Of a stretch of 64,000 bases of DNA, positions 10,576 to 61,185 are shown piece after piece (within the stretch, counting starts at the first letter, position 1; the number at the start of each line of letters is the position of its first letter). The DNA is taken from NCBI GenBank assembly GCA_964030475.1, contig CAXIPT010000001.1, positions 9,501,510 to 9,565,509 on the forward strand, read 5' to 3'. Source of the DNA: Tethya wilhelma (lineage: Eukaryota > Porifera > Demospongiae > Tethyida > Tethyidae). The notes beneath the pieces are model-generated. The model had not been told where the DNA came from. It did no database searches and worked only from the letters and a program-made list of their open reading frames with translations. The position numbers and the translations under genes are program-made.

Positions 10576-13500
10576 AATATATACCATATATCAGAAGAAG
10601 ATCAAGTTGTAACACTTCTTGGTAGCCTACCTCCAAGTTACTCTACTCTTGTCACTGCACTGGAATCTCGTGTTGACGAACTCAGCCTTGACTTTGTTCA
10701 ACAATCGCTTATCCACGAGGAGCAGAAGCAGAAAGATACAGTAACGACAAAGTCTTCAGACTCAGCATTACTGGGAGGAGCTAAGACAAACAAGGGTCGA
10801 AAACCACCTGTGTGCTGGAAATGCAATGAAATTGGACACATCCAACGTTATTGTCCAAAGAACAAAGCTGATCATGGACACAATGCTGCCAATGTTACAG
10901 AGCACCTTGTTCAAGATGATCCTGAAAATGCCTTTCACATGTCTGGAACATCCTCAAACCAAGAACAATGGATAGTTGACTCTGGTGCAACAAGTCACAT
11001 GACATTTCAGAAAGAGCTCCTTGTTGACTATCAGGAATTTGATACACCAGAGAAAGTTGGACTTGGAGATGGCAGAATTGTTGATGCTGTTGGAACTGGA
11101 AACGTTCGCTTGAGCATGAAATTCAAAGTGAGCAATCCTAAACGAGCAGTGATGCAGAAGGTGCTGTACGTACCTCAATTAGCAAGTAATCTCTTTTCGG
11201 TTCGAGCTGCTGCACAAAAGGGTAACATTGTCAAGTTTGGACATTCAAGGTGCTGGATCAGGAGTCAAACTGGAGAACTCTTGGGTATGGGCTCCTTGAA
11301 TGGGAAGCTGTATCATCTTGACTGTGAATCAAAGTTGCCCAGCATTGAGAAGGCAAGTGCTGCCACATGTGACAAGTCAAATGTTGATCTTTGGCATCAA
11401 CGTCTTGGTCATGTAAATGCTCAATACCTTAGTGATCTCTCGCAGAAAGAAATGGCAACTGGAATCAAGCTAACCAAGGAGGCACAACTGTCCTTCTGTG
11501 AAGGATGTATTGAAGGAAAGATGCACAGGAAGCCTTTTAAATCAGTGGGAGAAAATCGATCTACCCGAAAGCTTCAATTAGTGCATAGTGATGTCTGTGG
11601 TCCAATGCCAGAATCTATCGGAGGCAAAAAGTATTTTGTTTCGTTCATTGATGATTTTTCTCGATGCTGTGCTGTTTACTTTCTGAGCAACAAGAGTGAG
11701 GTGTTTGAGAAGTTCAAGGAATTTGAAGCTATAACCGCAAATGAGTGTGGAGAACATATTGGAATTTTGAGAACTGACAACGGAGGAGAATATGTCTCAA
11801 GGGAGTTTGAAAATTACCTGAAATCAAAGGGAATAACTCACCAACTCACAATTCTACACACCCCTGAGCAGAACGGAGTGGCAGAACGTATGAATCGAAC
11901 ACTCATGGAATCTGCACGGTCAATGCTATCGCACTCTCATCTTTCTGACAAATATTGGGCTGAAGCTATCTCCACAGCAGCTTACCTCAGGAATAGGTCA
12001 GTGTCATCTGCCATCTGTGAAGACAAAACACCATACGAAATGTGGTACAATCAGAAACCAGATCTTAGTCATCTCAAGGTCTTTGGTTGTGTAGCTTATG
12101 CTCACATTCCAGATTCACAACGTCGAAAGCTAGACAAAAAGGCAGAAAAGTATCGTTTTGTTGGTTATTGCAAAAATTCAAAGGGCTACAGATTACTCGA
12201 TGAAACATCATGGAAGATTGTAAAAAGGAGAGATGTGACATTCAATGAATTCTCCTTTAATATGAATGACACAACTGTCAACTTGAAGCAACAGTCGATG
12301 CTGGATCTGGAGCCAGCGAGTAAAACTGTAGAGGAGCATGCTGAGAGTGAAGAGGAGCAGCAAGTGCGCCAGTCCACAAGAGACAGAAGGCAACCAGTAA
12401 GGTATGGGTTTGATGAATATGCTGATGCAGCAAAAGTTGATCATCTAGCATGCAGAGCATCTCAAATCATTGAGCCTATGACAATTGAAGAGGCATTTGC
12501 TGGTGATGAAGCAAGCGAATGGAGGGCTGCTGCCAACTCGGAGTACACATCGTTGTTGGAGAATCAAACCTGGGAGCTCGTCAAGCTTCCTCCAGATAGA
12601 GAAGCCATACCATGCAAGTGGGTGTTTAAGGTGAAATACAGAGATGACGGAAATGTTGAGAGATTCAAGGCACGATTAGTAGCGAAGGGATATGTTCAAA
12701 AGCATGGAATCGACTACGATGAAACATTCTCACCAGTTGTACGTCTCTCATCAATCAGAATTCTGTTGGCATTTGGTTTGCAGAATGACATGCATATCCA
12801 TCAGATGGATGTTGTTACCGCCTTTCTACATGGAAATCTCGAAGAAGAAATCTATATGACACAACCCTGTGGTTACTCAGTAGAAGGGAAGGAAGATCTT
12901 GTGTGTAGGCTTAACAAATCCTTGTATGGCCTAAAGCAAGCACCACGGTGTTGGAACAAAGCTTTCCAAGAGTATATTGAGGCCTTGGGATTCTCTCAGA
13001 GTACAGCTGATCCATGTGTTTTTATCGAAGTGTCTGACATGTCCACAACAACGGTCATTGCAGTTTATGTGGACGACCTGATTTTGATGACTAGAGACTT
13101 AAACAGAATGCAGGAATTGAAGCAAAGTCTAGCTGAACAGTTTAAAATGAAAGACATGGGTCCACTACACTACATTCTAGGAATCACTGTGATACAAGGT
13201 GATAACTTCATTAGTCTCCATCAAAAGCATTACATCCTGAAGCTGTTGAAGAAGTTTGGTTTGGAAGAAGCAAAGACAATTGCTACTCCAGCAGACATTA
13301 ATGTCAAGCTGACAAAAGATGATCAAGTAAGCAAGAAGGCAGACTCTACAAAGTTTCAATCACTTGTTGGAAGTCTCCTCTATGCTGCAGTTAGTACCCG
13401 ACCTGATATCTCGCTAGCAGTGGGAGCTGTTTCAAAGTTTTGCTCAGACCCATCTGAATTACACTTGACAGCAGCCAAACGGATACTCAGATATCTCAAA

Positions 13501-14019
13501 GGTACCTTGAATCTCACTCTAATGTATAGAAAATCAGAAAATGTGTCACCTGTTGGCTATGCTGATGCTAACTGGGCTGGAGATCTTGACAGCAGACGAT
13601 CCACATCTGGGAATGCATTCTTAATGAATGAGAGTGCCATTTGTTGGCTGAGTAAAACACAACCAACCGTTGCATTATCTTCTTCTGAGGCCGAGTATGT
13701 ATCACTAAGTTTGGCTGCACAAGAAGCAACATGGATCCGTAGATTTCTTGGTGATCTACAAGTTATAACTAGCTCAATTGAAGTAATGGAGGACAATCAA
13801 GGAGCAATTGCAATTGCTAAGAACCCCGTTTCTCATGTTCGTACCAAACATATTGACATCAGATATCACTTTGTCCGTGAAGCCATTCAGCAGAATGTTA
13901 TTGCTGTTAAATATTGCCCAACTGAAGACATGGTGGCCGATATCCTAACTAAACCACTAACAAAGAGCCGATTTGAAAGGTTACGCCAAGCTTTGGGCAT
14001 GCACTATCTCTCTAATTAA
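10576..14019 (+). CDS. Copia Gag-Pol polyprotein (gag C-terminus to RNase H)
   Basis: One uninterrupted frame from 10576 to TAA at 14017-14019, about 1,147 codons; the first ATG is near 10831. Order: end of gag; zinc knuckle CWKCNEIGHIQRYC (from 10813); aspartic protease IVDSGATSHM (Asp 10978); GAG-pre-integrase with a HxxxH..CxxC zinc site; integrase core with Asp 11590, Asp 11776 (RTDNGGEY) and Glu 11884 (NGVAER), 35 residues between the last two; reverse transcriptase with YVDDL at about 13066; RNase H from about 13557 (YADANWAGD). This is copia order (integrase before RT). All catalytic residues I can check are present, so the pol part looks recently active. The polyprotein is normally cut by its own protease and assembled in cytoplasmic particles. 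Confidence 0.9.
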   Translation, partial: NIYHISEEDQVVTLLGSLPPSYSTLVTALESRVDELSLDFVQQSLIHEEQKQKDTVTTKSSDSALLGGAKTNKGRKPPVCWKCNEIGHIQRYCPKNKADHGHNAANVTEHLVQDDPENAFHMSGTSSNQEQWIVDSGATSHMTFQKELLVDYQEFDTPEKVGLGDGRIVDAVGTGNVRLSMKFKVSNPKRAVMQKVLYVPQLASNLFSVRAAAQKGNIVKFGHSRCWIRSQTGELLGMGSLNGKLYHLDCESKLPSIEKASAATCDKSNVDLWHQRLGHVNAQYLSDLSQKEMATGIKLTKEAQLSFCEGCIEGKMHRKPFKSVGENRSTRKLQLVHSDVCGPMPESIGGKKYFVSFIDDFSRCCAVYFLSNKSEVFEKFKEFEAITANECGEHIGILRTDNGGEYVSREFENYLKSKGITHQLTILHTPEQNGVAERMNRTLMESARSMLSHSHLSDKYWAEAISTAAYLRNRSVSSAICEDKTPYEMWYNQKPDLSHLKVFGCVAYAHIPDSQRRKLDKKAEKYRFVGYCKNSKGYRLLDETSWKIVKRRDVTFNEFSFNMNDTTVNLKQQSMLDLEPASKTVEEHAESEEEQQVRQSTRDRRQPVRYGFDEYADAAKVDHLACRASQIIEPMTIEEAFAGDEASEWRAAANSEYTSLLENQTWELVKLPPDREAIPCKWVFKVKYRDDGNVERFKARLVAKGYVQKHGIDYDETFSPVVRLSSIRILLAFGLQNDMHIHQMDVVTAFLHGNLEEEIYMTQPCGYSVEGKEDLVCRLNKSLYGLKQAPRCWNKAFQEYIEALGFSQSTADPCVFIEVSDMSTTTVIAVYVDDLILMTRDLNRMQELKQSLAEQFKMKDMGPLHYILGITVIQGDNFISLHQKHYILKLLKKFGLEEAKTIATPADINVKLTKDDQVSKKADSTKFQSLVGSLLYAAVSTRPDISLAVGAVSKFCSDPSELHLTAAKRILRYLKGTLNLTLMYRKSENVSPVGYADANWAGDLDSRRSTSGNAFLMNESAICWLSKTQPTVALSSSEAEYVSLSLAAQEATWIRRFLGDLQVITSSIEVMEDNQGAIAIAKNPVSHVRTKHIDIRYHFVREAIQQNVIAVKYCPTEDMVADILTKPLTKSRFERLRQALGMHYLSN

Positions 14020-16176: not shown

Positions 16177-17262
16177 GTGACAGTACTGTATCGTGGCTCT
16201 GTAGAGCTTTCTAGTGCCGATGATCTTCAAGATCCGAAGGGAGCACTATCATCATCCATGAGCTCAGGGACAACCAAGAAGGCCAACGAAGCAGTACGGA
16301 ATGTCATGAATGGTACTCGTAATCGGAAACGTGGCAGTTATTCGAAGTTTACACCAGAACAGCAAGCGCAAGTAGGGCAATATGCAGCACTAAATGGAAA
16401 CCAAGCCACCATTAGAGTATTCTCCGAGAAGCTAGACGTTCAATTAAAGCTTATGACTGTTCAAACGTAGAAAGTGAAGTATTGGGCTGAACTTGCTCAC
16501 AGGTATAAACAGAAAGATGCATGGTAACCGTGATTGATCTCACTGCTAAAATCGATTCTTTGCCGGTCAAGAAACGTGGAAGACCACTGCTTCTTGGAGA
16601 CAAGCTTGACTGTCAAGTCCAGAACTATCTTCGGACAGTACGTGAAGGAGGTGGTGTGGTTACTACATCTATTGCCATGACAGCTGCTACAGCAATTGTC
16701 AAGAAAGCTGACTGAAATCTTCTTTCTGAAAATGGTGGACCAATAACCATTACCAACAACTGGGCCTAGTCCCTCCTCAATTGGATTTATTACGTTAAGT
16801 GACGTGGAAGTTCAGCTACGAAGATCACAGTACCTGATTTCAAAGCTACAAAAGAGCAATTCATTTTCGATGTGCAGGCTGTTATGGAGATAGAGGATAT
16901 CCCACCCGAATTAATATTCAATTGGGACCAGACAGGCATTACCATTCTTCCAGGATCATCCTAAACAATGGAGCCCAAAGGATCGAAGCGTGTTGAGATA
17001 GTCGGGATTGGTGACAAACGGCAGATAACATGTGCAGCTGTTTTTTGTGGGGCGCTAAATGGATTATCCCCACGGCTTATCTATCAAGGTAAAACCTCAG
17101 CCTGCCTACCTCATTATGATTTTCCCAAAGACTGTGAAGCCGTTTGGAGCACGCTGGCTTGTCAGTCTCTTTGACTAAATTTCTGAGAACAAGTCTATTG
17201 TACAAAATGGCTTTAAAGCAGCTGGTTTACTGTTCCAATGTAATCTTCTCTGGATAGTTTGC
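16177..17262 (+). pseudogene. Pogo-like DDE transposase, internally deleted
   Basis: Starting near 16258 (MSSGTTKKANEAVRNVMNG) the relic shows a basic helix-turn-helix region (RGSYSKFTPEQQAQVGQYAA), then LKKRGRP-like DNA-binding sequence with GGGVVTTSIAMTAATAIVKKAD (16521-16715). The DDE start FNWDQTGI (first Asp near 16926) follows, then TMEPKGSKRVEIVGIGDKRQI and LIYQGKTSACLP (16968-17110). From there it jumps to the C-terminal GARWLVSLFD and a SIVQNGFKAAG stretch, so the region with the second and third catalytic residues is deleted. Several stops and shifts are present. It belongs to a large animal family related to pogo/Tigger. Confidence 0.65.
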
Positions 17263-19336
17263 TGGACTATGATTATTAAATTCATAATTTTTATGCTACC
17301 ATGCTGTTTATAGTAGTCCAGCTCAAAACAGATTGTGATAATGTAGCATAAATAACTTGTCAAAGGAAAGAATACATATTCAAGTATATTAGGACACACT
17401 AAATGCATCTCTAGTCAATGCTCAACAGTTGAAGACAAATCGTGACCCTACTCTTTCTAAGGTACATGATGTTGTGCTACAAGGATATAGCGGCCCACTA
17501 TATATGCAGCCCTACCAATATCATAAACTACACAGTATATTCAGGACAAAGCCAACACCATAGATGCTAGATGGGTTCATATTTACTGCATTTAGATTCC
17601 ACTATCTTTTCTGTTGATTTGATTAAATTTTCATTGGTAAAATTGTTGTAGCTCAACATTTCACTTCAAGATCCCATCAAAAAGGAGTGGACAAGCATTC
17701 AACGATTGTAACTGATCATATTACAAAAAAAACCCTTAGCAAATGGCAGGTACAAACTTGATCAAAAACAAAATGAAGAATGGTTAAAATAGCAGACATT
17801 AGTATCAGTGACTATAGTGATAAAAAAATCATTGTAAAAGAGCACTGTGCATACCGCTGCATGAGTCTTGCTACTATTCTAAAGCATTATAGACTCAGTA
17901 TGGAAAGTGATACCAGTGATAGTATATACTCCCGCAGAAGCAGAAGTACCACTAAAGTCTAATGCAATAAGCATTGTCGCAGCTTGTGATGCCACAGGAA
18001 ATGAGTCCAAACTTGTTATCGAGTTTGTTCCAAGTTTCTTCATTCCTGAAGAAACAACTAGTTTACTATTGTAAATGAATCTCAAACATTTTCAAAGTAC
18101 AAAAAAGTACCATAATATGCATTGTGGTGTATGTATATTAAACAACACTCTTCAACAACAATCAACAACCGTGGAAAGCATAGTAGATGACCTGTGATTA
18201 TGGCAGTTGGATGATATAGGTTTCACATTGTGCATGCAATGGCATCCAGAAATTTGATCCCATATTGATGTTGTCATGAAAGGTGCAGCATATTTAGCGT
18301 ATAAACTTCAGCAACAAAATTGTGAAAATGCTCTCAGAAGTACGACAAATTAAGTAATTGCACTAATCCGAGTACAATCAGGGATCGTAAGCCATCATTG
18401 TACAGGACAGTCGTACAAAAATACCTCACTATTATAGCATACTGTTTTCTTCCCCATCTCGACTCACTTAAAATGAGGTGAAAGTTATCAGTGAGAAGAG
18501 TTTATATCAAGTTCTAAAGTGATGTTAAGTCAAATCAATCAAAAGTGAATTCGTATGCTCTACAGTCGTTGAATGACAGACCAGACTTTACCAGCCATTC
18601 ACCTTATTCCTTGCAGTCATTGACTGATGCTGCATTTAAAGAAATATCCACCTGATGCAAAGCATAATAGTTAATATATATATATATATATATATATATT
18701 TCACTATTACAAATCTGATTCAATAAAGGTATACAATGAAGGTACTCAGATTGATCAAGAGTCTGTTGCAAGTTCTCTCCAGCATGATTATGCTATAGAG
18801 TAATTAATTGATTTTCGCCGGACACCAATAATCGTCGGTTATTCTGCCAAGTACAGGACTATTTACCACTATCTAACTACATGCACTTACACAAGGTTAT
18901 TAGAGTAGCACGCTATGAAAAGTTGGAAAGAACAGCTCTCTTGCTGCCGAGATGACCGAGCTCTGAAGTGAACTGCTGAAAACTTCGATCTTCGTCAGCC
19001 TGAAACTAATTCCGTCTTTGCATGCTCACAGAATGAATATACTAGCAACACAAACATAACTTGGTGTGGTAGTTCTAAATAAAGACCACTACCAACAGGC
19101 AAAGGTCTCAGTCGCTGCCAGCCCCTCCTCCCAGAACTAGAATGTGACGAAATCATGACTCGATCAAGTCGAGGGTGAAAGGTCAGAGGTCAATTTTGGC
19201 GCAAACCCCCTATGACTGACAGGGTCAAAATGGCCAGCCAAATCAGCTGTTTTGTTTCTAAAAGTCAAAATAGGTAAGTGTAAAGTAAAGCACAACTACA
19301 TGTAGCACTAATATCAAACTTATTGCTGTTTTCGCA
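17263..19336. other. Non-coding stretch with a TA microsatellite
   Basis: AT-rich and full of stops. It includes a (TA)n run at about 18674-18699 and several short direct repeats. No domain is recognised. It may contain the promoter and first exon of the gene that begins at about 19337, because a putative acceptor (GCATTGAAAG) lies just before that frame. Confidence 0.4.
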
Positions 19337-20779
19337 TTGAAAGATCGGATATTAACCAGAACTCTCTCAGGATCTCTACAACTATCCTCATCATTGAAGT
19401 ACACAGATAATGCAACACGACCAAGCAAATATAAGGAGTGGTCGGACTTGAGTATGCGAGAAGCACTTAGTGCCATTCACGAAGGTATGAGTGTAAGCAA
19501 AGCATCTATGATATATGGGATACCCAAGACTACTTTAAATGACCATAAATTGGGGAAGGTGAAGCCTGGTGTGAAAGCAGGTCCCCCAACCCTGCTGTCG
19601 GCTTCACAAGAAGATGATTTAGTTAAATTTTTAGCCAAGTGTGCTGATATAGGCTATCCTCGAACACGAAGTGAAGTCTTGTTGATAGTGTCTCAACTAC
19701 TGGCTCGTAAAGGGGTTGAGCGCAGCGTTAGCAATGGGTGGTGGAATAACTTTCTTTGTCGTCACCCTCTGTTGCGAACCCAAACGCCTGCAACACTCTC
19801 TGTTTCCAGAGCTAAAGCGTCTACCAAAGAGTGTATTGATGCATATTTTGATCTCTTGGAGACCACATTGGAAGAAACAGGGCTTGCTGAGTACTCTGCA
19901 TTGCTGTTCAATATGGATGAGACAGGATTTGCTTATGATCCCAAGTCCAGCAAAACTGTGCATGTATGTGGAGAAAATGCCTTCTCCATTTCCAGTGGAT
20001 CAAAATCCCAAGTAACAGTTATTGCTTGTGTTAGCGCCACCGGGCAGGCTATTCCACCCTTGATCATTTGGAAGAGGAAAACGATGCCCCCTGAGATGGC
20101 GATCGGGGAGATACCAGGAACTCATTATGCTTTCTCAGACAGTGGTTGGGTTAATAGCCACATTTTTGATTCTTGGTTTGAAAAGCCTTTTTTGCGTTAC
20201 GCACCTGCAAGTAGACCACTGATTTTATTCATGGATGGACATAGCTCCCACTATTGTCCTGACACCATAGCACTTGCCCGTGAGAATGGAGTTATCTTAT
20301 TTACACTCCCACCCAATACCACACACCTTTTGCAGCCTTTAGACAAAGGTGTTTTTGGGCCTTTTAAAGCTCATTGGCGAAGTGTATGTCATGACTTTAA
20401 AATAAGCCACCCTGGAAGAGTAATTAATGACTATAATTTTTCTAGCATCTTTAGCAAATCTTGGCTCGAGTCCATGACAATCAGTAACATTGCAAGTGGC
20501 TTTCGTATGACAGGGATCTATCCTTGAATCGAAACGCCATTGAATTGCCGGGAGAGAGTAAATTTGCCGAAAAAATGATTCGCCCAAATATTGGCTTTAC
20601 TCCTTTCAAAGCTAAACATCTCCACACTTCAGGTGACCTGGCTGAAGGAGTAGCACAGATCAAACCAAGACCAAACTTTTTAAAGGACCGCATTAAGGGC
20701 CCTGAAGTACAAGCCAGTACTGCATTTACTATTCAACCACCTAATGTATTCAACATAAAAGCTGGTCATAACGTAACAG
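19337..20779 (+). CDS. Tigger/pogo-type DDE transposase domain
   Basis: About 395 residues before a single-base loss at 20524, then about 85 more in the next frame. The N-terminus has a pipsqueak-like helix-turn-helix (MREALSAIHEGMSVSKASMIYGIPKTTL), then a CENP-B/Tc5-type second DNA-binding unit (GWWNNFLCRHP). The DDE domain has FNMDETG (Asp 19917, residue 194), LFMDGHSSHYC (Asp 20234, residue 300) and NTTHLLQPLDKG (Asp 20342, residue 336). The last two are 36 residues apart, as in the second copy at 59.6 kb, and all three are intact. The frame breaks at IYP|NRNA with one base missing. The usual Lys-rich Tigger tail is replaced by a shorter linker leading to a phase-1 donor (CAG|GTAAAT). Confidence 0.85.
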
Positions 20780-22669
20780 GTAAATACACAATAATTATAG
20801 CATGCAACTGCTTAATTATTTAATATTATACCATTTCAGAGGAATTATCTCGTTGTTTTGTATGTGGGGCTAACTCTCTTGTCACATTCAAGCCTTGTGG
20901 GCATTGCACTCTCTGTGAAAAATGTGCAAAAAGGGTAAAGAAATGCCCCACTTGCAAGGTATGCAATTCTATGGTTAACTATAATTAGCAGTGGTGTGTA
21001 ACATGTACATATTATACATCTATAGAAGTGTGTGATGAGCCTTCTAAATTAAGTCCTGTGAAGCCCTGTGGTCACTTATTCTGTTCAGGTATTTGTCGTT
21101 ATATAAGATTATAAATCCATGTGCATGTCATTGTAGTATGATTATTGTATAGCTTGTTCTGAAAGAATGAAGTCTTGCTTTGTTTGCAAGACACCTATAC
21201 TTCGTGCGTGTGACCCACCCGAAGACTCTGCTGGTCAGTGTACATTTTGCGTAGTGTTTTATGTTCCATATTGATGTGTGTGCATGCATCCATCCCAATG
21301 CATAATAATAATGTTTTAATTTACAGCAGCAAACTCTGATTCCGACACTGACAGAGATCCATATGTTGAATCTGCTTCTTTCTTTCCAGAAGACAATAGT
21401 TGCTCTCCAAACAAAAGTATGAATGTATTATGTATAATGGAGGGAATGCATTCATTAGCCCTAAGCTATTTATTTACAGGCCTTGCTAGCCACAACTGTG
21501 GTAAGGAGATTTATTTTTAAAAACAACAACAACAAATCTTGCAGTTGGGAAAATGTTTGCAGTTTGAGCGAAATTCAAATTTTGTACCAAAACCTTTTAG
21601 TTTATTGGCAGGGTTATTGCTGTACAATATTTCATATGTGTACCGTTCATTCAAATCATAGGTACACTGCTGAATCGCTCTGTCTCATATTGTTTGCCAA
21701 AAGTTGAAGGCTACTTTGAAGGTACATGGATAAGTCTACATGCATTATTGTACACTGGCTTCTCTCTTTCTCACTAGTCTGTATACACTTATGTATGAGC
21801 AAGGGCTTGATTATAAATTCTGATAGCTACATGCTAAAATTTTACATCTGTCAATATATTTTGTACACGGTGCTACCTAGGCTCGATCAGTGTCTCATCC
21901 AGTCCAGTACCTGACTGCCCTGAGTTTACATCATGGGTTGGTGATCTTGCTTTGTCAGTGGCAGACAGACGAATACTAGTCAATGGAAAGTGGTTGACAG
22001 CGTCACATATCTCAGCAGCTAATTCCCTACTAAAAGCTCAATTCCCATCTCAAAATGGCCTGTGTGATACGTGTATATTGAAGGAGAGAGGAAAATGGTT
22101 GTCAAAATCAGATGGATTCGTTCAAATAATACACATATCCCCAGGACACTGGGCATGCTTATCCAACAAATTTTCCTGTGAAGGCAATGTTGAACTGTTT
22201 GACTCACTTCAAACAATTCCTGAAGAAGATGGCACAATCATTTCTCAAGCATGTAGCATTGTACGTACCCAACAGCCAACCTTAACCATCAGTGTTGTAA
22301 ATGTTGGCCTCCAACAAGGTGGAAGTGACTGTGGCTTGTACGCCATTGCTATGGCGTATGATTTATGTGCTGGTGTGGATCCGGCTTCCAAGGAGTATGT
22401 TCAAGACGAACTGCGAAGTCATCTCCACGATTGTATAGTGACAAAACAGATCAAGGCATTTCCCAGCACTGTTAGAATTGTCTCAAAAAGAACAATTATG
22501 ACAGTGAAGACAGATGTTCATTGCACATGTCGAATGCCAGAAAGTTCATGGATGGTGTGTTGTGATCAATGCCATACTTGGTACCACGAGGACTGTATTT
22601 TGGTTCCGGATGAGGTGCGTAGTGACACAAGTGATACAATACCTTGGCATTGCCATCAATGCGAGAAAG
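19337..22669 (+). CDS. Multi-exon fusion gene: Tigger transposase - RING - RING - Ulp1 protease - PHD
   Basis: Proposed exons: 19337-20779 (one frameshift at 20524), 20840-20958, about 20992-21088, 21153-21233, 21327-21416, 21480-21500, 21662-21721, 21881-22669. All junctions are GT-AG, and all but one are phase 1 and keep the frame open. The RING1/RING2 join is unclear (phase 0, 33-bp gap, or a read-through stop). Domains in order: pipsqueak/CENP-B-type DNA binding and DDE transposase, two RING-like zinc fingers, C48 (Ulp1) cysteine protease, PHD finger. A basic AT-hook-like exon array follows at 23.1-23.7 kb. Inferred role: a nuclear DDE recombinase or its domesticated descendant, with ubiquitin-ligase-type, SUMO-protease-type and histone-reading parts. 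The alternative is two adjacent genes. Consistent phase and spacing favour one. Confidence 0.55.
20840..21233 (+). CDS. Two RING-like finger exons
   Basis: Exon 20840-20958 gives CFVCG, then FKPCGHCTLCEKC and CPTCK, a complete C3HC4-like spacing close to the RING type of mind bomb and neuralized E3 ligases. Exons ending 21088 and 21153-21233 together give EVCDE, KPCGHLFCSACSERM and CFVCKTP, a second finger split by a phase-1 intron. RING fingers of this type recruit ubiquitin-conjugating enzymes, so an E3 role is inferred. The first Cys of finger 2 depends on which acceptor is used (20992 or 21026). The upstream neighbour is the transposase tail and the downstream one is the Ser/Asp-rich linker. 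Confidence 0.65.
21327..21721 (+). CDS. Linker exons between RING and Ulp1 domains
   Basis: Exon 21327-21416 encodes an acidic linker (NSDSDTDRDPYVES, then FFPEDNSC). A 21-nt micro-exon candidate, 21480-21500, gives LASHNC. Exon 21662-21721 gives LLNRSVSYCLPKVEGYFE. All have phase-1 boundaries with AG/GT at both ends and stay open when joined. The micro-exon is the least certain; omitting it also keeps the frame because its length is a multiple of three. No known domain is present. Confidence 0.45.
21881..22669 (+). CDS. Ulp1-type (C48) cysteine protease plus PHD finger
   Basis: The exon starts after CTACCTAG. Protease: the substrate-side region GKWLTASHISAANSLLKAQFP, then His (GHWAC, codon 22147), Asp (LFDS, codon 22201), and Gln plus Cys in QQGGSDCG (Cys codon 22330). 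The His-Asp-Cys triad and oxyanion Gln are all present. Ulp1/SENP enzymes remove SUMO or related modifiers; which one is cut here is unknown. A PHD finger follows: HCTCRMPESSWMVCCDQC, WYHEDC and WHCHQC (about 22519-22662). The exon ends CGAGAAAG|GTAAAT, again phase 1, so at least one more exon follows. Reading on past the donor gives a frame to 22800. Confidence 0.75.
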
Positions 22670-22800
22670 GTAAATGGTACAATTATATGATAAGTGCACA
22701 TCTATTCCCGTACGTCATATTAAAGGTACACGAACTCCCTGGCTTGGAGGAGTATGTGTTTAATAAAGTTCCATGTCAATGTACTCTATTTACATCCTGA

Positions 22801-23100
22801 CCCATCTCACCACTCCACTGATATTATCCTTATATTAGCTTAATATGAAAGTGTGTATAGCTCGAAGTACAAAGTTTAACCCTTTGACTGCTACTGAGTG
22901 TATATATATATGGTTTGGGGTTCAAATTTAATAAAAAAAACTTAGGAGTCAGTAAAAACTTCCATATTGTGCTAACACATAGTTGAATCATTATAATTAT
23001 AGGCTATTCAATAAAAATTTTGTTTTTTTTACTTGGATTATGTGGATGTAGAGAGGGGCTAAAAACGGGAATAAAAAGTGGGCAGAGTTACCTTGTGTAT
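22801..23100. other. Intron-like spacer
   Basis: AT-rich, with a short TA run (22901-22911), poly-A/T tracts and no coding frame. It lies between the PHD exon and the tandem small exons and is probably an intron. Confidence 0.4.
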
Positions 23101-23752
23101 GTGTGTGTGTCTTTGTATTGACTCAGTAGTACACGCTGCTCTTACATTCCTTAATCACTCTTCCTGATGACAATAAGTCACCTCAAGATTGTGAGGCTGT
23201 TTTGAAACCCAAGAGAGGAGGCCGAGGGAAGAATCAAGCAGGTACATGTTGTGTGTGTCTTCATAATATTGACCCAGTAATACACGCTACTCTTACATTC
23301 CTTAGTCACTCTTCCTGATGACCATGAGTCACCTCCTCAAGATTGTGGAGCTGTTTTGAAACCCAAGAGAGGAGGCCGAGGGAAGAATCAAGCAGGTACA
23401 TGTTGTGTGTGTCTTTGTATTGACTCAGTAATACACGCTACTCATAGTCACTCTTCCTGATGACCATGAGTCACCTCCCCAAGATTGTGAGGCTGTTTTG
23501 AAACCCAAGAGAGGAGGCCGGTGGAAGAATCAAGCAGGTACATGTTGTGTGTGTATTGTATTGACCCAGTAATACATGCTACTCTTACATTTCTTAGTCA
23601 CTCTTCTTGATGACCATGAGTCACCTCCTCAAGATTGTGGAGTTGTTTTGAAACCCAAGAGAGGAGGCTGAGGGAAGAATCAAGCAGGTACATGTTGTGT
23701 GTGTATGTTTGTATTGACCCAGTAATACAAGCTACTCTTACATTCCTTAGTT
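23101..23752 (+). repeat. Tandem array of a 90-nt symmetric exon with its intron (4 copies plus a partial)
   Basis: The repeat unit is about 142-151 bp and contains a GT-rich intron and a small exon: 23155-23241 (87 nt), 23306-23395, 23448-23537 and 23598-23687 (90 nt each). Each exon ends GCAG|GTACAT and copies 2-4 have an AG acceptor. All are phase 1 at both sides, so any number can be spliced in. The encoded peptide ends LKPKRGGRGKNQA, a basic Gly/Arg/Lys block like an AT-hook. Copy 1 has AA instead of AG at its acceptor, and copy 4 has TGA in place of the Arg codon of GGRGK. A fifth unit is cut off at 23752 after the acceptor. Their phase matches the PHD exon upstream. Confidence 0.75.
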
Positions 23753-23929
23753 ACCCATTGCCAGAAATACGCGGACACGGAAAATAATTTTACGTAATCT
23801 CTCCGTTTTAGTTAGTTTAAAAGTTATGACCTTTCCAAATATTGATGAGATTATTTTACTATACATTATAAGGTATCATGACTGTTGACCCAGGCCTTAA
23901 GTACACAGAGAAAGCTGCTTGTCATAGCA

Positions 23930-57945: not shown

Positions 57946-58913
57946 CCATATAGTGGGAAAATTTGGCAGGCACAAAATTTGGCAAATTGTTCTGAATGTC
58001 GAAAAAGTAAAAATTCTTAATTTGGCGAATTCTTACTGACGTACTTTGCGCGTACACAAACGCATATATTTTATATCCTTGATTTTGGTGACGTATTCCA
58101 AGCACATGATATAGATATGCGATCGATCGAGCAGCTGTCTAGTACGTGTGAAAGCATCGTCTTCTGCAGATCTGATCTAGTTCAAGTATGGAAGTCTATG
58201 AATTTGAGAGCTGTGTGAGAGGCCATCATGTTTATGGATGTGTTTGGAGAGCTACAGTAGATGAGCAGTTAGAATGTGAGCCTGAACCAGAAAACCAAAA
58301 AGATCCCTACGCTGTTGCCGTACTGAAAAATGATGCTATAGTTGGACACGTACCCAGAAAAATATATATCAGCAGCTTGTACTCTGTTCATAAGAAAGAG
58401 AGGAACCATAGACTGTAATGTCAAAGGAAGAAGACGATACTCTAGTGATCTCCCACAGGGTGGACTAGAGGTACCCTGTGTCTACCGATTTCAAGGCACT
58501 TCCCAGCTGGTGTCGAAAATAAAGAGACTGCTGGTTAGTAAATCTGTCCCGGCTGTCAATGATGAAAATGACCCTGATTCTGAATCTCCAAAAAGTAAAC
58601 GTATTAAAATAGACCCTGATCCAAAAACTAGTCTAACCCCTGATTCAGTGTGGAAAGTCGTGAATGGCTATGAACTTAGCCAGGCTGACAAGTTAACCAT
58701 GTTATCTGGGGGAAGGCTTAATGACAAACACATCAATTTTGCTCATCAGATTTTAAAGAGACAATTTCCTAACCTGACTGGACTTCAATCCACTCTCCTC
58801 CTCTCTACACATAAATCCCAGCAAATTATATGGCGACTTTTAATTTGGCAAATTTTCATATTACTCGCCAATTCGCCAAATTAAATTCTTCGCCAAATTT
58901 TCCCGCTATACGG
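57946..58913. mobile_element. TIR element carrying a HIRAN-Ulp1 gene fragment
   Basis: Left end CCATATAGTGGGAAA (57946-57960) and right end TTTCCCGCTATACGG (58899-58913) are inverted repeats with two mismatches in 15. TA flanks both (57944-57945 and 58914-58915), the target duplication typical of Tc1/mariner/pogo. Subterminal AATTTGGC words are shared by both ends in opposite orientation. Between them lies a 5' gene segment with HIRAN and the start of an Ulp1 domain that runs into the right end. No second pair of ends was found that would make these two separate solo insertions. Length 968 bp. Confidence 0.6.
58188..58803 (+). pseudogene. HIRAN domain plus truncated Ulp1-like domain
   Basis: ATG at 58188 opens the HIRAN domain: YEFESCVRGHHVYGCVWRAT, then NQKDPYAVAVLKNDAIVGHV. 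A small shift near 58358, where a TA-rich tract (AATATATATC) seems enlarged, moves to the next frame: AACTLFIRKRGTIDC, RRRYSSDLPQGGLEVPC. A linker with KSKRIKIDPDPK (nuclear signal) leads to LSGGRLNDKHINFAHQILKR and QFPNLTGLQSTLL, the N-terminal part of an Ulp1-like domain. The His, Asp and Cys that would follow are missing. HIRAN domains bind DNA 3' ends or damaged DNA in HLTF-type proteins. I recall HIRAN-Ulp1 proteins in sponges and corals as uncharacterized. Confidence 0.65.
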
Positions 58914-59568: not shown

Positions 59569-61185
59569 ATGGAGCGACCTTTGAAGGAGCGATTCGTTGG
59601 ACCTCTGCATGGAACTTCCACAGAAGGTCACAGTGGGCTTGAAGTCAACTCCAGTCGACCATCTCACTACAAGAATTGGTCAGAGACAAGCCTACACAAA
59701 GCATACCAAGCTCATCTGAATGGGATGTCACTAAGAAGGGCTGCAGAGGCCTACCATGTTCCTCATTCCACTCTAGCTGAGAGAGCCTCGGGCAAAGTGA
59801 CATTTGGTGCCAGGAGTGGGCCAGCCACTTACCTTACCGACATTGAAGAGCTTGAGCTCGTGCAGTATCTTACTCATTGTGCTAGTGTTGGGTATGCTAA
59901 ATCAAAGCAAGATCTAATGGCAATTGTCAGAAATGTTCTTGTTTACAAAGGAGTGCCGGATGCCATTGTAAGTGATGGCTGGTGGGCATCTTTCAAACGT
60001 AGGCACAGCATGTTAACGCTGAGAACTGGCGAACAGTTGTCGTATGCAAGAGCAGTAGCTGATTCACCCGAAATTCTCAACAGTTACTTCGATCTCCTGG
60101 AAGAGACTATGGATAAAAACAGCCTAATGGATAAGCCAGCACAAATTTTCAATCTGGATGAGAATGGCATGCCTTTAGACCCCAAACCACCGAAAGTGGT
60201 TACCATTCGAGGCGTTAAGCATGCCACCACTATTTCTACAGGAAATAAATCACAGATCACTGTTTTGTCATGCTTCAGTGCTTCTGGGTATGTGATTCCT
60301 CCTCTTGTCATTTTTAAACAACAAGTCACCCCAAATCTTGCATTCGGAGAAGTGCCAGGTACTGTATACGGACGGTCCAAAAGTGGATGGATTACTGCAG
60401 AACTTTTTGATGACTGGTTCCACGGGCATTTTCTTGCACATGCCCCTGCAGCTCGACCGCTCCTGTTAGTAATGGATGGCCATTCAACACATTATTGTCC
60501 TAGAGTTATCAACACAGCTCTAGAAGAGAAAGTCATCCTGCTTTGTCTCCCTCCCAACACGACGCACTTCACCCAGCCGTTAGACAAGGGGTGTTTCGGC
60601 CCCCTCAAGGTCGCTTGGCAAGACAAATGCAGAGAGTTTGTGCAGAGAAATCCAGGAAGAGTGGTGACAAGATTTGACTTCTCCCAGCTCTTCGGAGCAG
60701 CCTGGATGAAGTCTATGGGAATGAGTAATGTAGTTGCTGGCTTCCGATGTTGTGGAATCTATCCGTTTAACCGAGATATAGTTCTACCCAAACCCTCTGT
60801 TACCTCTCCGAGCCGAGAAGAGAGATATGGTGTCAAATTCATCCCTACTTATAGCCCTGCTCCTCCAAGAATAATGCCTCTACCAATTGAAAGTGATAGG
60901 ATGGAGAGTCGAATGCAAGCTTTGAAGGTCCATCTTATTTGAAGTACCGGTCAACCTTGACACAAGTAGTGTCAAAGCTGCCAAAGGCTCAGATCAAGTA
61001 TCCACAGTTCAATGCAAAAGATAGATCTGGAAAAGTGTTGACAAGTGCCGAGAAGATCAGAGAAGATGAAGAAAAAAAAACAGAAAAAGGCAGCAGAAGA
61101 GCTTGCTCGACTAAAGAAGAAGGAAGAAAAGGAACTGGCTAGAAAGAAGAAGCAAGAGGAGAAGGAAAAACGGAAAAGACCCAAG
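59569..61185 (+). pseudogene. Tigger/pogo-type DDE transposase, second copy
   Basis: The main frame, 59569-60942 (457 codons), holds a pipsqueak-like helix-turn-helix (HKAYQAHLNGMSLRRAAEAY), a CENP-B/Tc5-type unit (GWWASFKRRHS) and the DDE core: FNLDENG (Asp 60157, residue 197), LVMDGHSTHYC (Asp 60475, residue 303), NTTHFTQPLDKG (Asp 60583, residue 339). All three are present. A frameshift near 60942 and another in the A-run at about 61072-61082 precede the Lys-rich coiled tail (KEEKELARKKKQEEKEKR). It resembles the copy at 19.3 kb in order and spacing but is clearly diverged, so they are not recent duplicates. It follows the HIRAN-Ulp1 fragment on the same strand. Confidence 0.8.

What the first reader, a model, noticed from the sequence alone, without database searches (positions are those of the whole stretch)
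19337..23752. Candidate new system: DDE transposase fused to two RING fingers, an Ulp1 protease, a PHD finger and AT-hook-like exons
Seen: a Tigger-type DDE domain with three intact Asp, then GT-AG exons carrying two RING-like fingers, a C48 protease with His-Asp-Cys present, a PHD finger, and a tandem array of small basic exons. All joins but one are phase 1 and keep one frame open through about 3.3 kb. Known: the RAG recombinase pairs a DDE nuclease with RING (RAG1) and PHD (RAG2) modules, and Ulp1-like proteases occur in some Mutator-like plant elements. I know of no pogo/Tigger element with RING, Ulp1 and PHD on one chain. Inference: a transposon or domesticated recombinase that reads chromatin and edits ubiquitin/SUMO marks at its targets.
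Basis: partly seen in the sequence, partly recalled or inferred. Interest (0 to 1): 0.93.

Follow-up and report, generated by a model that had tools for sequence, protein, structure and literature searches.

The report
Tigger transposon with chromatin-protein add-ons

Summary
The observation mostly holds. Window 18794-23754 is a copy of a TA-target, long-TIR pogo/Tigger element carrying, 5' to 3', HTH_psq, DDE_1 transposase, RING1, RING2, a C48 (Ulp1/SENP/NEDP1-fold) domain, a PHD finger and a small-exon array. A sibling on contig C8 has the same domain order (array not matched) between 359-bp TIRs, 98.3% identical and ending in TA, so the extra modules belong to the transposon. dN/dS between subfamilies is low. 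Protease residues and an H3K4me3-reader-like PHD cage are kept in 46-47 of 47 aligned relatives. The window copy is dead: frameshift at 20525, right TIR not found, shortened 5' region. One chain is not shown: in sibling C3, RING1 cannot be joined in frame to RING2, whereas skipping RING1 works there and in the window, suggesting alternative isoforms. Close RING1 matches occur only in three copies of this genome. Ulp1-PHD is commoner, mostly found without this transposase, and absent beside an apparently TIR-bounded element of the same clade. A second pogo-like family carries a convergent HIRAN-Ulp1 gene. Verdict: new variant of a known kind (transposons with captured chromatin or ubiquitin/SUMO modules), not a domesticated recombinase.

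The parts
18794..19151 (+). left terminal inverted repeat (terminus TA-GAGTAATTAATTGAT...)
   Evidence: 96% identical and inverted at the 3' end of copy L069, 76% in L070; 67% in siblings C3 and C8, of which C8 has both TIRs
19344..20524 (+). HTH_psq + DDE_1 (pogo/Tigger-type) transposase exon; its frame stops at TGA 20525-20527
   Evidence: Pfam; ORFs; 108 matches in own genome
20528..20779 (+). conserved transposase tail, in the next frame in this copy; donor GT at 20780, phase 1
   Evidence: ORF 20488-20823; directly continues the transposase match in C3 and C8
20840..20958 (+). RING1 exon (C3HC4; closest solved RINGs XIAP, cIAP, MYLIP); enters in phase 1, leaves in phase 0
   Evidence: dN/dS 0.16 against C3 and C8 over 35 codons
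21026..21088 (+). RING2 first half; first Cys damaged in this copy; alternative start 20992
21153..21233 (+). RING2 second half, phase 1-1 exon
   Evidence: exon end by inspection
21327..21416 (+). acidic Ser/Asp-rich exon, phase 1-1
   Evidence: by inspection; no conservation shown outside this copy
21662..21721 (+). short linker exon, phase 1-1
   Evidence: by inspection; 100% identical in C3, within the segment nearly identical to the window
21881..22669 (+). Ulp1 (C48)-PHD exon; His 22147-22149, Asp 22201-22203, Gln 22312-22314, Cys 22330-22332; PHD about 22516-22665
23102..23754 (+). tandem array of about 150-bp units, each with a 31-aa basic exon (KPKRGGRGK); the 4th unit carries a stop
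23808..23911 (.). high-copy ~100-bp repeat just beyond the broken 3' end (not part of the element)
   Evidence: 22 other places at 89-95%

Best explanation
It is a decayed copy of a pogo/Tigger cut-and-paste transposon that gained chromatin and ubiquitin/SUMO modules. Shown: long TIRs flanked by TA, a DDE transposase with a psq-type DNA-binding domain, and RING, Ulp1 and PHD blocks on the same strand inside a TIR-bounded sibling, with low dN/dS between subfamilies. Inferred: the transposase cuts at the TIRs and inserts at TA; the PHD (cage like DIDO1/Spp1/PHF2) docks the complex on H3K4-methylated open chromatin; the Ulp1-like domain removes SUMO or NEDD8 from the transposase, from SUMO-dependent silencing factors or from repair proteins; the RING ubiquitinates the transposase or a neighbour to release it. 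RING1 and RING2 are probably alternatives: one product ends in RING1, the other skips RING1 and runs through RING2 to Ulp1 and PHD. The 9 Ulp1-linked DDE rows all fall in one clade, so Ulp1-PHD was probably gained near its base and often lost; the RING pair was added in one sub-branch.
Against: No transcript or protein data; one chain not shown. C12 (L049), in the same clade, has 294-bp inverted repeats, 100% identical, around its DDE and no Ulp1 match within 7 kb, so the module may not be needed for movement; one of those repeats abuts a single N, so an assembly effect is possible. The Ulp1 label needs 6 changes on the DDE tree, with 52 of 500 shuffles as low; the Ulp1 tree does not unite the DDE-linked rows (5 changes, 22 of 500 shuffles as low). 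Some own-genome Ulp1 rows have lost a catalytic residue: Asn for Asp in L014 and L016, Tyr for His in L020 and L025, Tyr for Cys in L027. PHD dN/dS reaches 0.35 and 0.49 in two wide pairs, C3-C8 DDE 0.83, window-C3 Ulp1 1.0 on few changes. C3 is 99% identical to the window over 888 nt but about 71% elsewhere, and that segment stops near a single N: recombinant or misassembled; no right TIR was found for C3. C8's genes are broken. No Ulp1/SENP chain is among the 60 shown of 110 profile hits in PDB sequences.
Confidence: 0.7

Rival explanations
1. Two genes in one element: a transposase (with or without RING1) and a separate RING2-Ulp1-PHD gene with its own promoter, acting in trans, as CryptonS elements encode an additional C48 protein.
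For: The RING1 exon ends in phase 0 and every join to RING2 tried in C3 meets a stop; a second family here has Ulp1 in a separate convergent gene; at C53 Ulp1-PHD sits in its own 451-aa ORF after a different 654-aa ORF.
Against: Skipping RING1 gives one open frame from the transposase tail into RING2 in the window and in C3, and the later joins read as phase 1-1 (by inspection); no Ulp1 place lies upstream of its nearest same-strand DDE (0 against 10 downstream).
Confidence: 0.25
2. Chance neighbourhood in a transposon nest: Ulp1-PHD, RING and Tigger pieces of different elements landed side by side.
For: The window is rich in element pieces; Ulp1-PHD has no DDE near it at 53 of 70 places.
Against: Same order in siblings C3 and C8, inside TIRs in C8; 16 pairings within 5.5 kb against 1.16 expected; contig lengths 114154 and 614510 are each shared by a DDE hit and a Ulp1-PHD hit in the protein collection, which suggests linkage elsewhere.
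Confidence: 0.03
3. A domesticated host gene, RAG-like.
For: Domain parallel to RAG1 RING and RAG2 PHD; low dN/dS between subfamilies.
Against: Several copies, TIRs present, this copy frameshifted and truncated, C3-C8 DDE dN/dS 0.83.
Confidence: 0.02

Closest known systems
Ginger1 DNA transposons (Hydra), e.g. Ginger1-9_HM
   Same: DDE transposase with C-terminal Ulp1 and PHD, and TIRs (PMC2836005, passages seen)
   Different: Gypsy-integrase-type transposase, not pogo/Tigger; no RING in the passages seen
Pogo/Tigger transposons
   Same: pogo-type transposase with HTH and DDE_1; Tigger reported from Porifera (PMC7386202, passages seen); TA target recalled
   Different: The terms Ulp1 and PHD occur 0 times in that paper's main text; the vertebrate fusions it names (CENPB, POGK, POGZ) carry other domains
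RAG1/RAG2 and Chapaev (Transib/Chapaev group)
   Same: RING in RAG1 and in two Chapaev subgroups; PHD in RAG2 that binds H3K4me3 (PMC4411706 and PMC11844651, passages seen)
   Different: Another transposase superfamily; PHD sits on a separate protein and is absent from ProtoRAG's RAG2-like protein; no SUMO protease domain (recalled)
Ulp1-bearing MULEs and Cryptons; Rehavkus
   Same: Accessory C48 protease (PMC2836005, PMC3212892); Rehavkus has a PHD finger and a minisatellite before the 3' TIR, a MULE called Ghost has a RING ORF (PMC6446971); passages seen
   Different: Other superfamilies; the RING-Ulp1-PHD set was not in the passages seen
TET/JBP-carrying DNA transposons of fungi (PMC12730594, abstract and outline seen)
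   Same: One chromatin-related module captured by many DNA transposon lineages
   Different: A DNA-modifying dioxygenase, not ubiquitin/SUMO/PHD modules

Membership tests
pogo/Tigger transposon | DDE_1 catalytic domain with three Asp | tested here: met
   Pfam E 1.1e-22; 35 residues between 2nd and 3rd Asp
pogo/Tigger transposon | HTH (psq/CENPB-type) N-terminal DNA-binding domain | tested here: met
   HTH_psq E 3.4e-10; HTH_Tnp_Tc5 only 0.0066, below cut-off
pogo/Tigger transposon | TIRs and TA target site | tested here: met
   met in sibling C8; in the window only the left TIR was found
pogo/Tigger transposon | place inside the Tigger clade of a pogo tree with named reference elements | not tested
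   no reference elements were put in the tree; Tigger rather than another pogo family rests on resemblance
C48 (Ulp1/SENP) protease | fold, and His-Asp-Gln-Cys order | tested here: met
C48 (Ulp1/SENP) protease | cleaves SUMO, NEDD8 or ubiquitin | not testable with these tools
   needs an assay
H3K4me3-reading PHD | zinc ligands and aromatic cage | tested here: met
   columns 214 Y/F/H 47 of 47, M225 46 of 47, W234 46 of 47; the window has His at 214; which columns form the cage is recalled, not modelled
H3K4me3-reading PHD | binds H3K4me3 | not testable with these tools
   needs a binding assay
RING E3 ligase | C3HC4 ligands | tested here: met
   RING1 complete; RING2 damaged in the window, complete in C3
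Ginger1 | Gypsy-type integrase | tested here: not met
   Pfam at E up to 1 finds DDE_1, HTH_psq, DDE_3, HTH_Tnp_Tc5 only
RAG recombinase | Transib/RAG1 core | tested here: not met
   same Pfam result
domesticated host gene | single intact copy without TIRs | tested here: not met

The most novel reading that the evidence does not exclude
A pogo/Tigger lineage independently arrived at a RAG-like solution: one alternatively spliced gene makes a short DDE-RING form and a long DDE-RING-SUMO protease-PHD form, which reads H3K4me3 to choose targets and strips SUMO (and adds ubiquitin) to defeat SUMO-based silencing or to finish repair; related elements solve the same problem with a convergent HIRAN-Ulp1 gene.
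Probability: 0.25. Interest if true: 0.85.

Novelty: new variant of a known kind. Interest (0 to 1): 0.62.

Why it matters
If it works as inferred, it is a second, independent joining of a DDE nuclease to a RING and an H3K4me3-type PHD (the RAG pattern), with a SUMO/NEDD8-protease fold added. Together with Ginger1, MULEs, Cryptons and the HIRAN-Ulp1 pogo-like family seen here, it would make the idea that DNA transposons repeatedly need to remove SUMO or ubiquitin-like marks testable on small, well-defined domains.

Tried and rejected
Rejected: domesticated gene; chance neighbourhood; an intact gene in the window. Tried without result: Ulp1-PHD profile in genome contigs (11 pattern matches, no relative) and viral contigs (30 pattern matches, no relative); PDB by single sequence for Ulp1 (best E 0.99); Pfam on the 654-aa ORF at C53 and on window 58342-58881 and 16177-16467 (none); inverted repeats around the C1:1.18 Mb copy (many short matches among repeats downstream, no pair that brackets the genes with good identity). 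An AT-hook was not tested with a model; it is judged by eye (RGRKPRGRKP in P0134). Foldseek itself was not run.

Literature: eight searches. One search (four of pogo, transposase, Ulp1, PHD finger, RING finger) found 0 papers. Of the others only part was listed (20 of 36, 16 of 17, 15 of 1,886, 4 of 4, 10 of 32, 6 of 110, 8 of 17), and I saw titles and abstract beginnings; none of those describes pogo/Tigger with RING, Ulp1 and PHD, or HIRAN-Ulp1 in a transposon. Six papers were seen as passages and one as abstract and outline; none was read whole. Most subscription papers are not in that library; I did not look for Repbase Reports.

Rows dropped before counts: one search used 72 of the 130 rows (bits 57.9 or more; merged to 70 places) and 146 of the 258 rows (overlapping and some weak rows left out by hand; merged to 141). 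The Ulp1 at C8:3236583 was counted as convergent with a DDE 239 bp away although a same-strand DDE lies about 3.6 kb upstream (C8:3240799); in the tree that DDE row is unlabelled. One search used 29 of the 30 DDE loci (L040, near-identical to the window, left out). One search used 28 places, fragments included. One search used 46 of the 77 hits plus the window; one search used 29 of the 120 listed of 444. Two of the six convergent pairs were read (L075, L076). dN/dS comes from my own Nei-Gojobori script; most wide pairs are saturated at synonymous sites and the RING counts rest on 16-35 codons.
Full report
What is there. The window is G000:C1:9501510-9565509 of a 124.6-Mb genome. A DDE frame at 19289-20527 gives HTH_psq and DDE_1. 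The transposase frame ends at TGA 20525-20527 and its conserved tail continues in the next frame (ORF 20488-20823); in C3 and C8 the tail directly continues the transposase match. Downstream come RING1 (20840-20958), RING2 in two exons, an acidic exon, a short linker, a Ulp1-PHD exon (21881-22669) and an array of about 150-bp units (23102-23754).

Element boundaries. The stretch 18794-19151 is 96% identical to the far end of copy L069 in inverted orientation and also ends L070. The sibling C8:2179611-2186586 has 359-bp TIRs, 98.3% identical, ending TAGAGTAATT...AATTACTCTA. Between them lie, on one strand, DDE, RING1, RING2, Ulp1 and PHD. The C8 genes are themselves broken: the DDE match is split in two frames, RING2 has a gap and the PHD part has a stop and a lost first Cys. 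C3 has the left TIR only, no PHD, and an unexplained inverted repeat just outside its left TIR. In the window no right TIR was found; about 190 bp lie between TIR and transposase, against about 800 bp in C8 (positions); and a repeat with 22 other copies in the list follows. This copy is a fossil of a transposon, not a working gene.

One chain or two? The joins other than RING1 to RING2 read as phase 1 to phase 1 (by inspection; for the RING region). RING1 ends in phase 0 at a GT donor in the window, C3 and C8; the frames of P0004 and P0005 read CPTCKV at this place, as if running into such a donor. In C3 each of the three RING1-to-RING2 joins tried meets a stop, whereas skipping RING1 gives an open frame into RING2 with two of the three starts; the window offers one in-frame route that includes RING1 and one that skips it. 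C8 cannot be judged past RING2a because of its 10-base gap. I therefore think RING1 and RING2 are alternatives, giving a short and a long product. This is inference; a separate downstream gene is the main rival.

How general is it? Of 70 strong Ulp1 places, 10 have their nearest DDE upstream on the same strand, 6 have a convergent DDE, 0 have a same-strand DDE downstream, 1 is divergent at 6957 bp and 53 have none within 7 kb; chance expectation 1.16. On a DDE tree of 29 rows all 9 Ulp1-linked rows lie in one 16-row clade (support 80/94), but 6 label changes are needed and 52 of 500 shuffles do as well. The Ulp1 tree mixes linked and unlinked rows (5 changes, 22 of 500 shuffles as low). In six divergent copies I saw a basic Lys/Glu-rich tail in most and no RING between DDE and Ulp1 (by eye). 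Close RING1 matches are the window, C3 and C8. In the same clade L049 (C12) has 294-bp inverted repeats at 100% around its DDE and no Ulp1 match nearby, so the module seems dispensable; one repeat abuts a single N. The protein collection holds Ulp1-PHD relatives up to 72% identical, and two contig lengths are shared between DDE and Ulp1-PHD hits.

A second solution nearby. Two of the six convergent pairs were read. L076 has a 490-aa DDE frame and, on the other strand, HIRAN and C48 frames, within 59-bp inverted repeats at 90%; L075 has a DDE region and a 330-aa HIRAN-C48 frame within 48-bp repeats at 85%. HIRAN-Ulp1 gives 444 hits; the 120 listed include Amphimedon queenslandica and Halichondria panicea records, and His, Asp, Gln and Cys are invariant in 29 aligned. 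The window has pieces that look like this family at 16177-16470 and 58342-58884 (by eye; no Pfam match).

Comparison. Ginger1 pairs a Gypsy-type transposase with Ulp1 and in one family PHD (PMC2836005). Chapaev subgroups and RAG1 have RING, and RAG2 a PHD that binds H3K4me3 (PMC4411706; PMC11844651). [quoted passage not shown] a MULE with a RING ORF is described in PMC6446971. The pogo survey PMC7386202 has 0 occurrences of Ulp1 or PHD in its main text. I therefore file this as a pogo/Tigger-type transposon by tested features, a new variant by its module set, and RAG-like only by analogy.

Noticed in passing
L076 (C4:5216300-5220000) and L075 (C27:71800-75600): Small pogo-like elements (59-bp and 48-bp inverted repeats) with a DDE region and a convergent HIRAN-Ulp1 gene; four more convergent DDE/Ulp1 pairs were counted but not read. 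HIRAN-Ulp1 gives 444 protein hits.
   Followed up: partly
window 58342-58884 and 16177-16470: Frames resembling the HIRAN-Ulp1 gene and the transposase of that second family, truncated (by eye; no Pfam match).
   Followed up: partly
window 59569-60942: Another Tigger-type transposase frame (457 aa, DDE_1 E 1.8e-19) with no Ulp1-PHD match near it.
   Followed up: partly
window 10576-14019: Open 1147-aa frame that reads like a Copia-type polyprotein (by eye, not tested).
   Followed up: no
C3:7091090-7091974 against window 21495-22382: 888-nt stretch 99% identical while the rest of the element is about 71%: recombination between copies or an assembly chimera (a single N lies near its end).
   Followed up: no
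L077/L029 (C53:61800-69724): Ulp1-PHD in a 451-aa ORF after a 654-aa ORF with no Pfam match: the module may also travel with another element kind.
   Followed up: partly
C1:9.47-9.53 Mb: Local cluster of copies close to the window's (C1:9480927, 9490963, 9493996); in L069 the array matches fall in two blocks about 2 kb apart.
   Followed up: partly
L049 (C12:274369-278484): Tigger-type DDE between 294-bp inverted repeats that are 100% identical; one repeat abuts a single N, so TIRs or an assembly effect.
   Followed up: no
L017 (C1:13892530) and C1:13883202: Nearly identical Ulp1 copies about 9 kb apart in opposite orientation.
   Followed up: no
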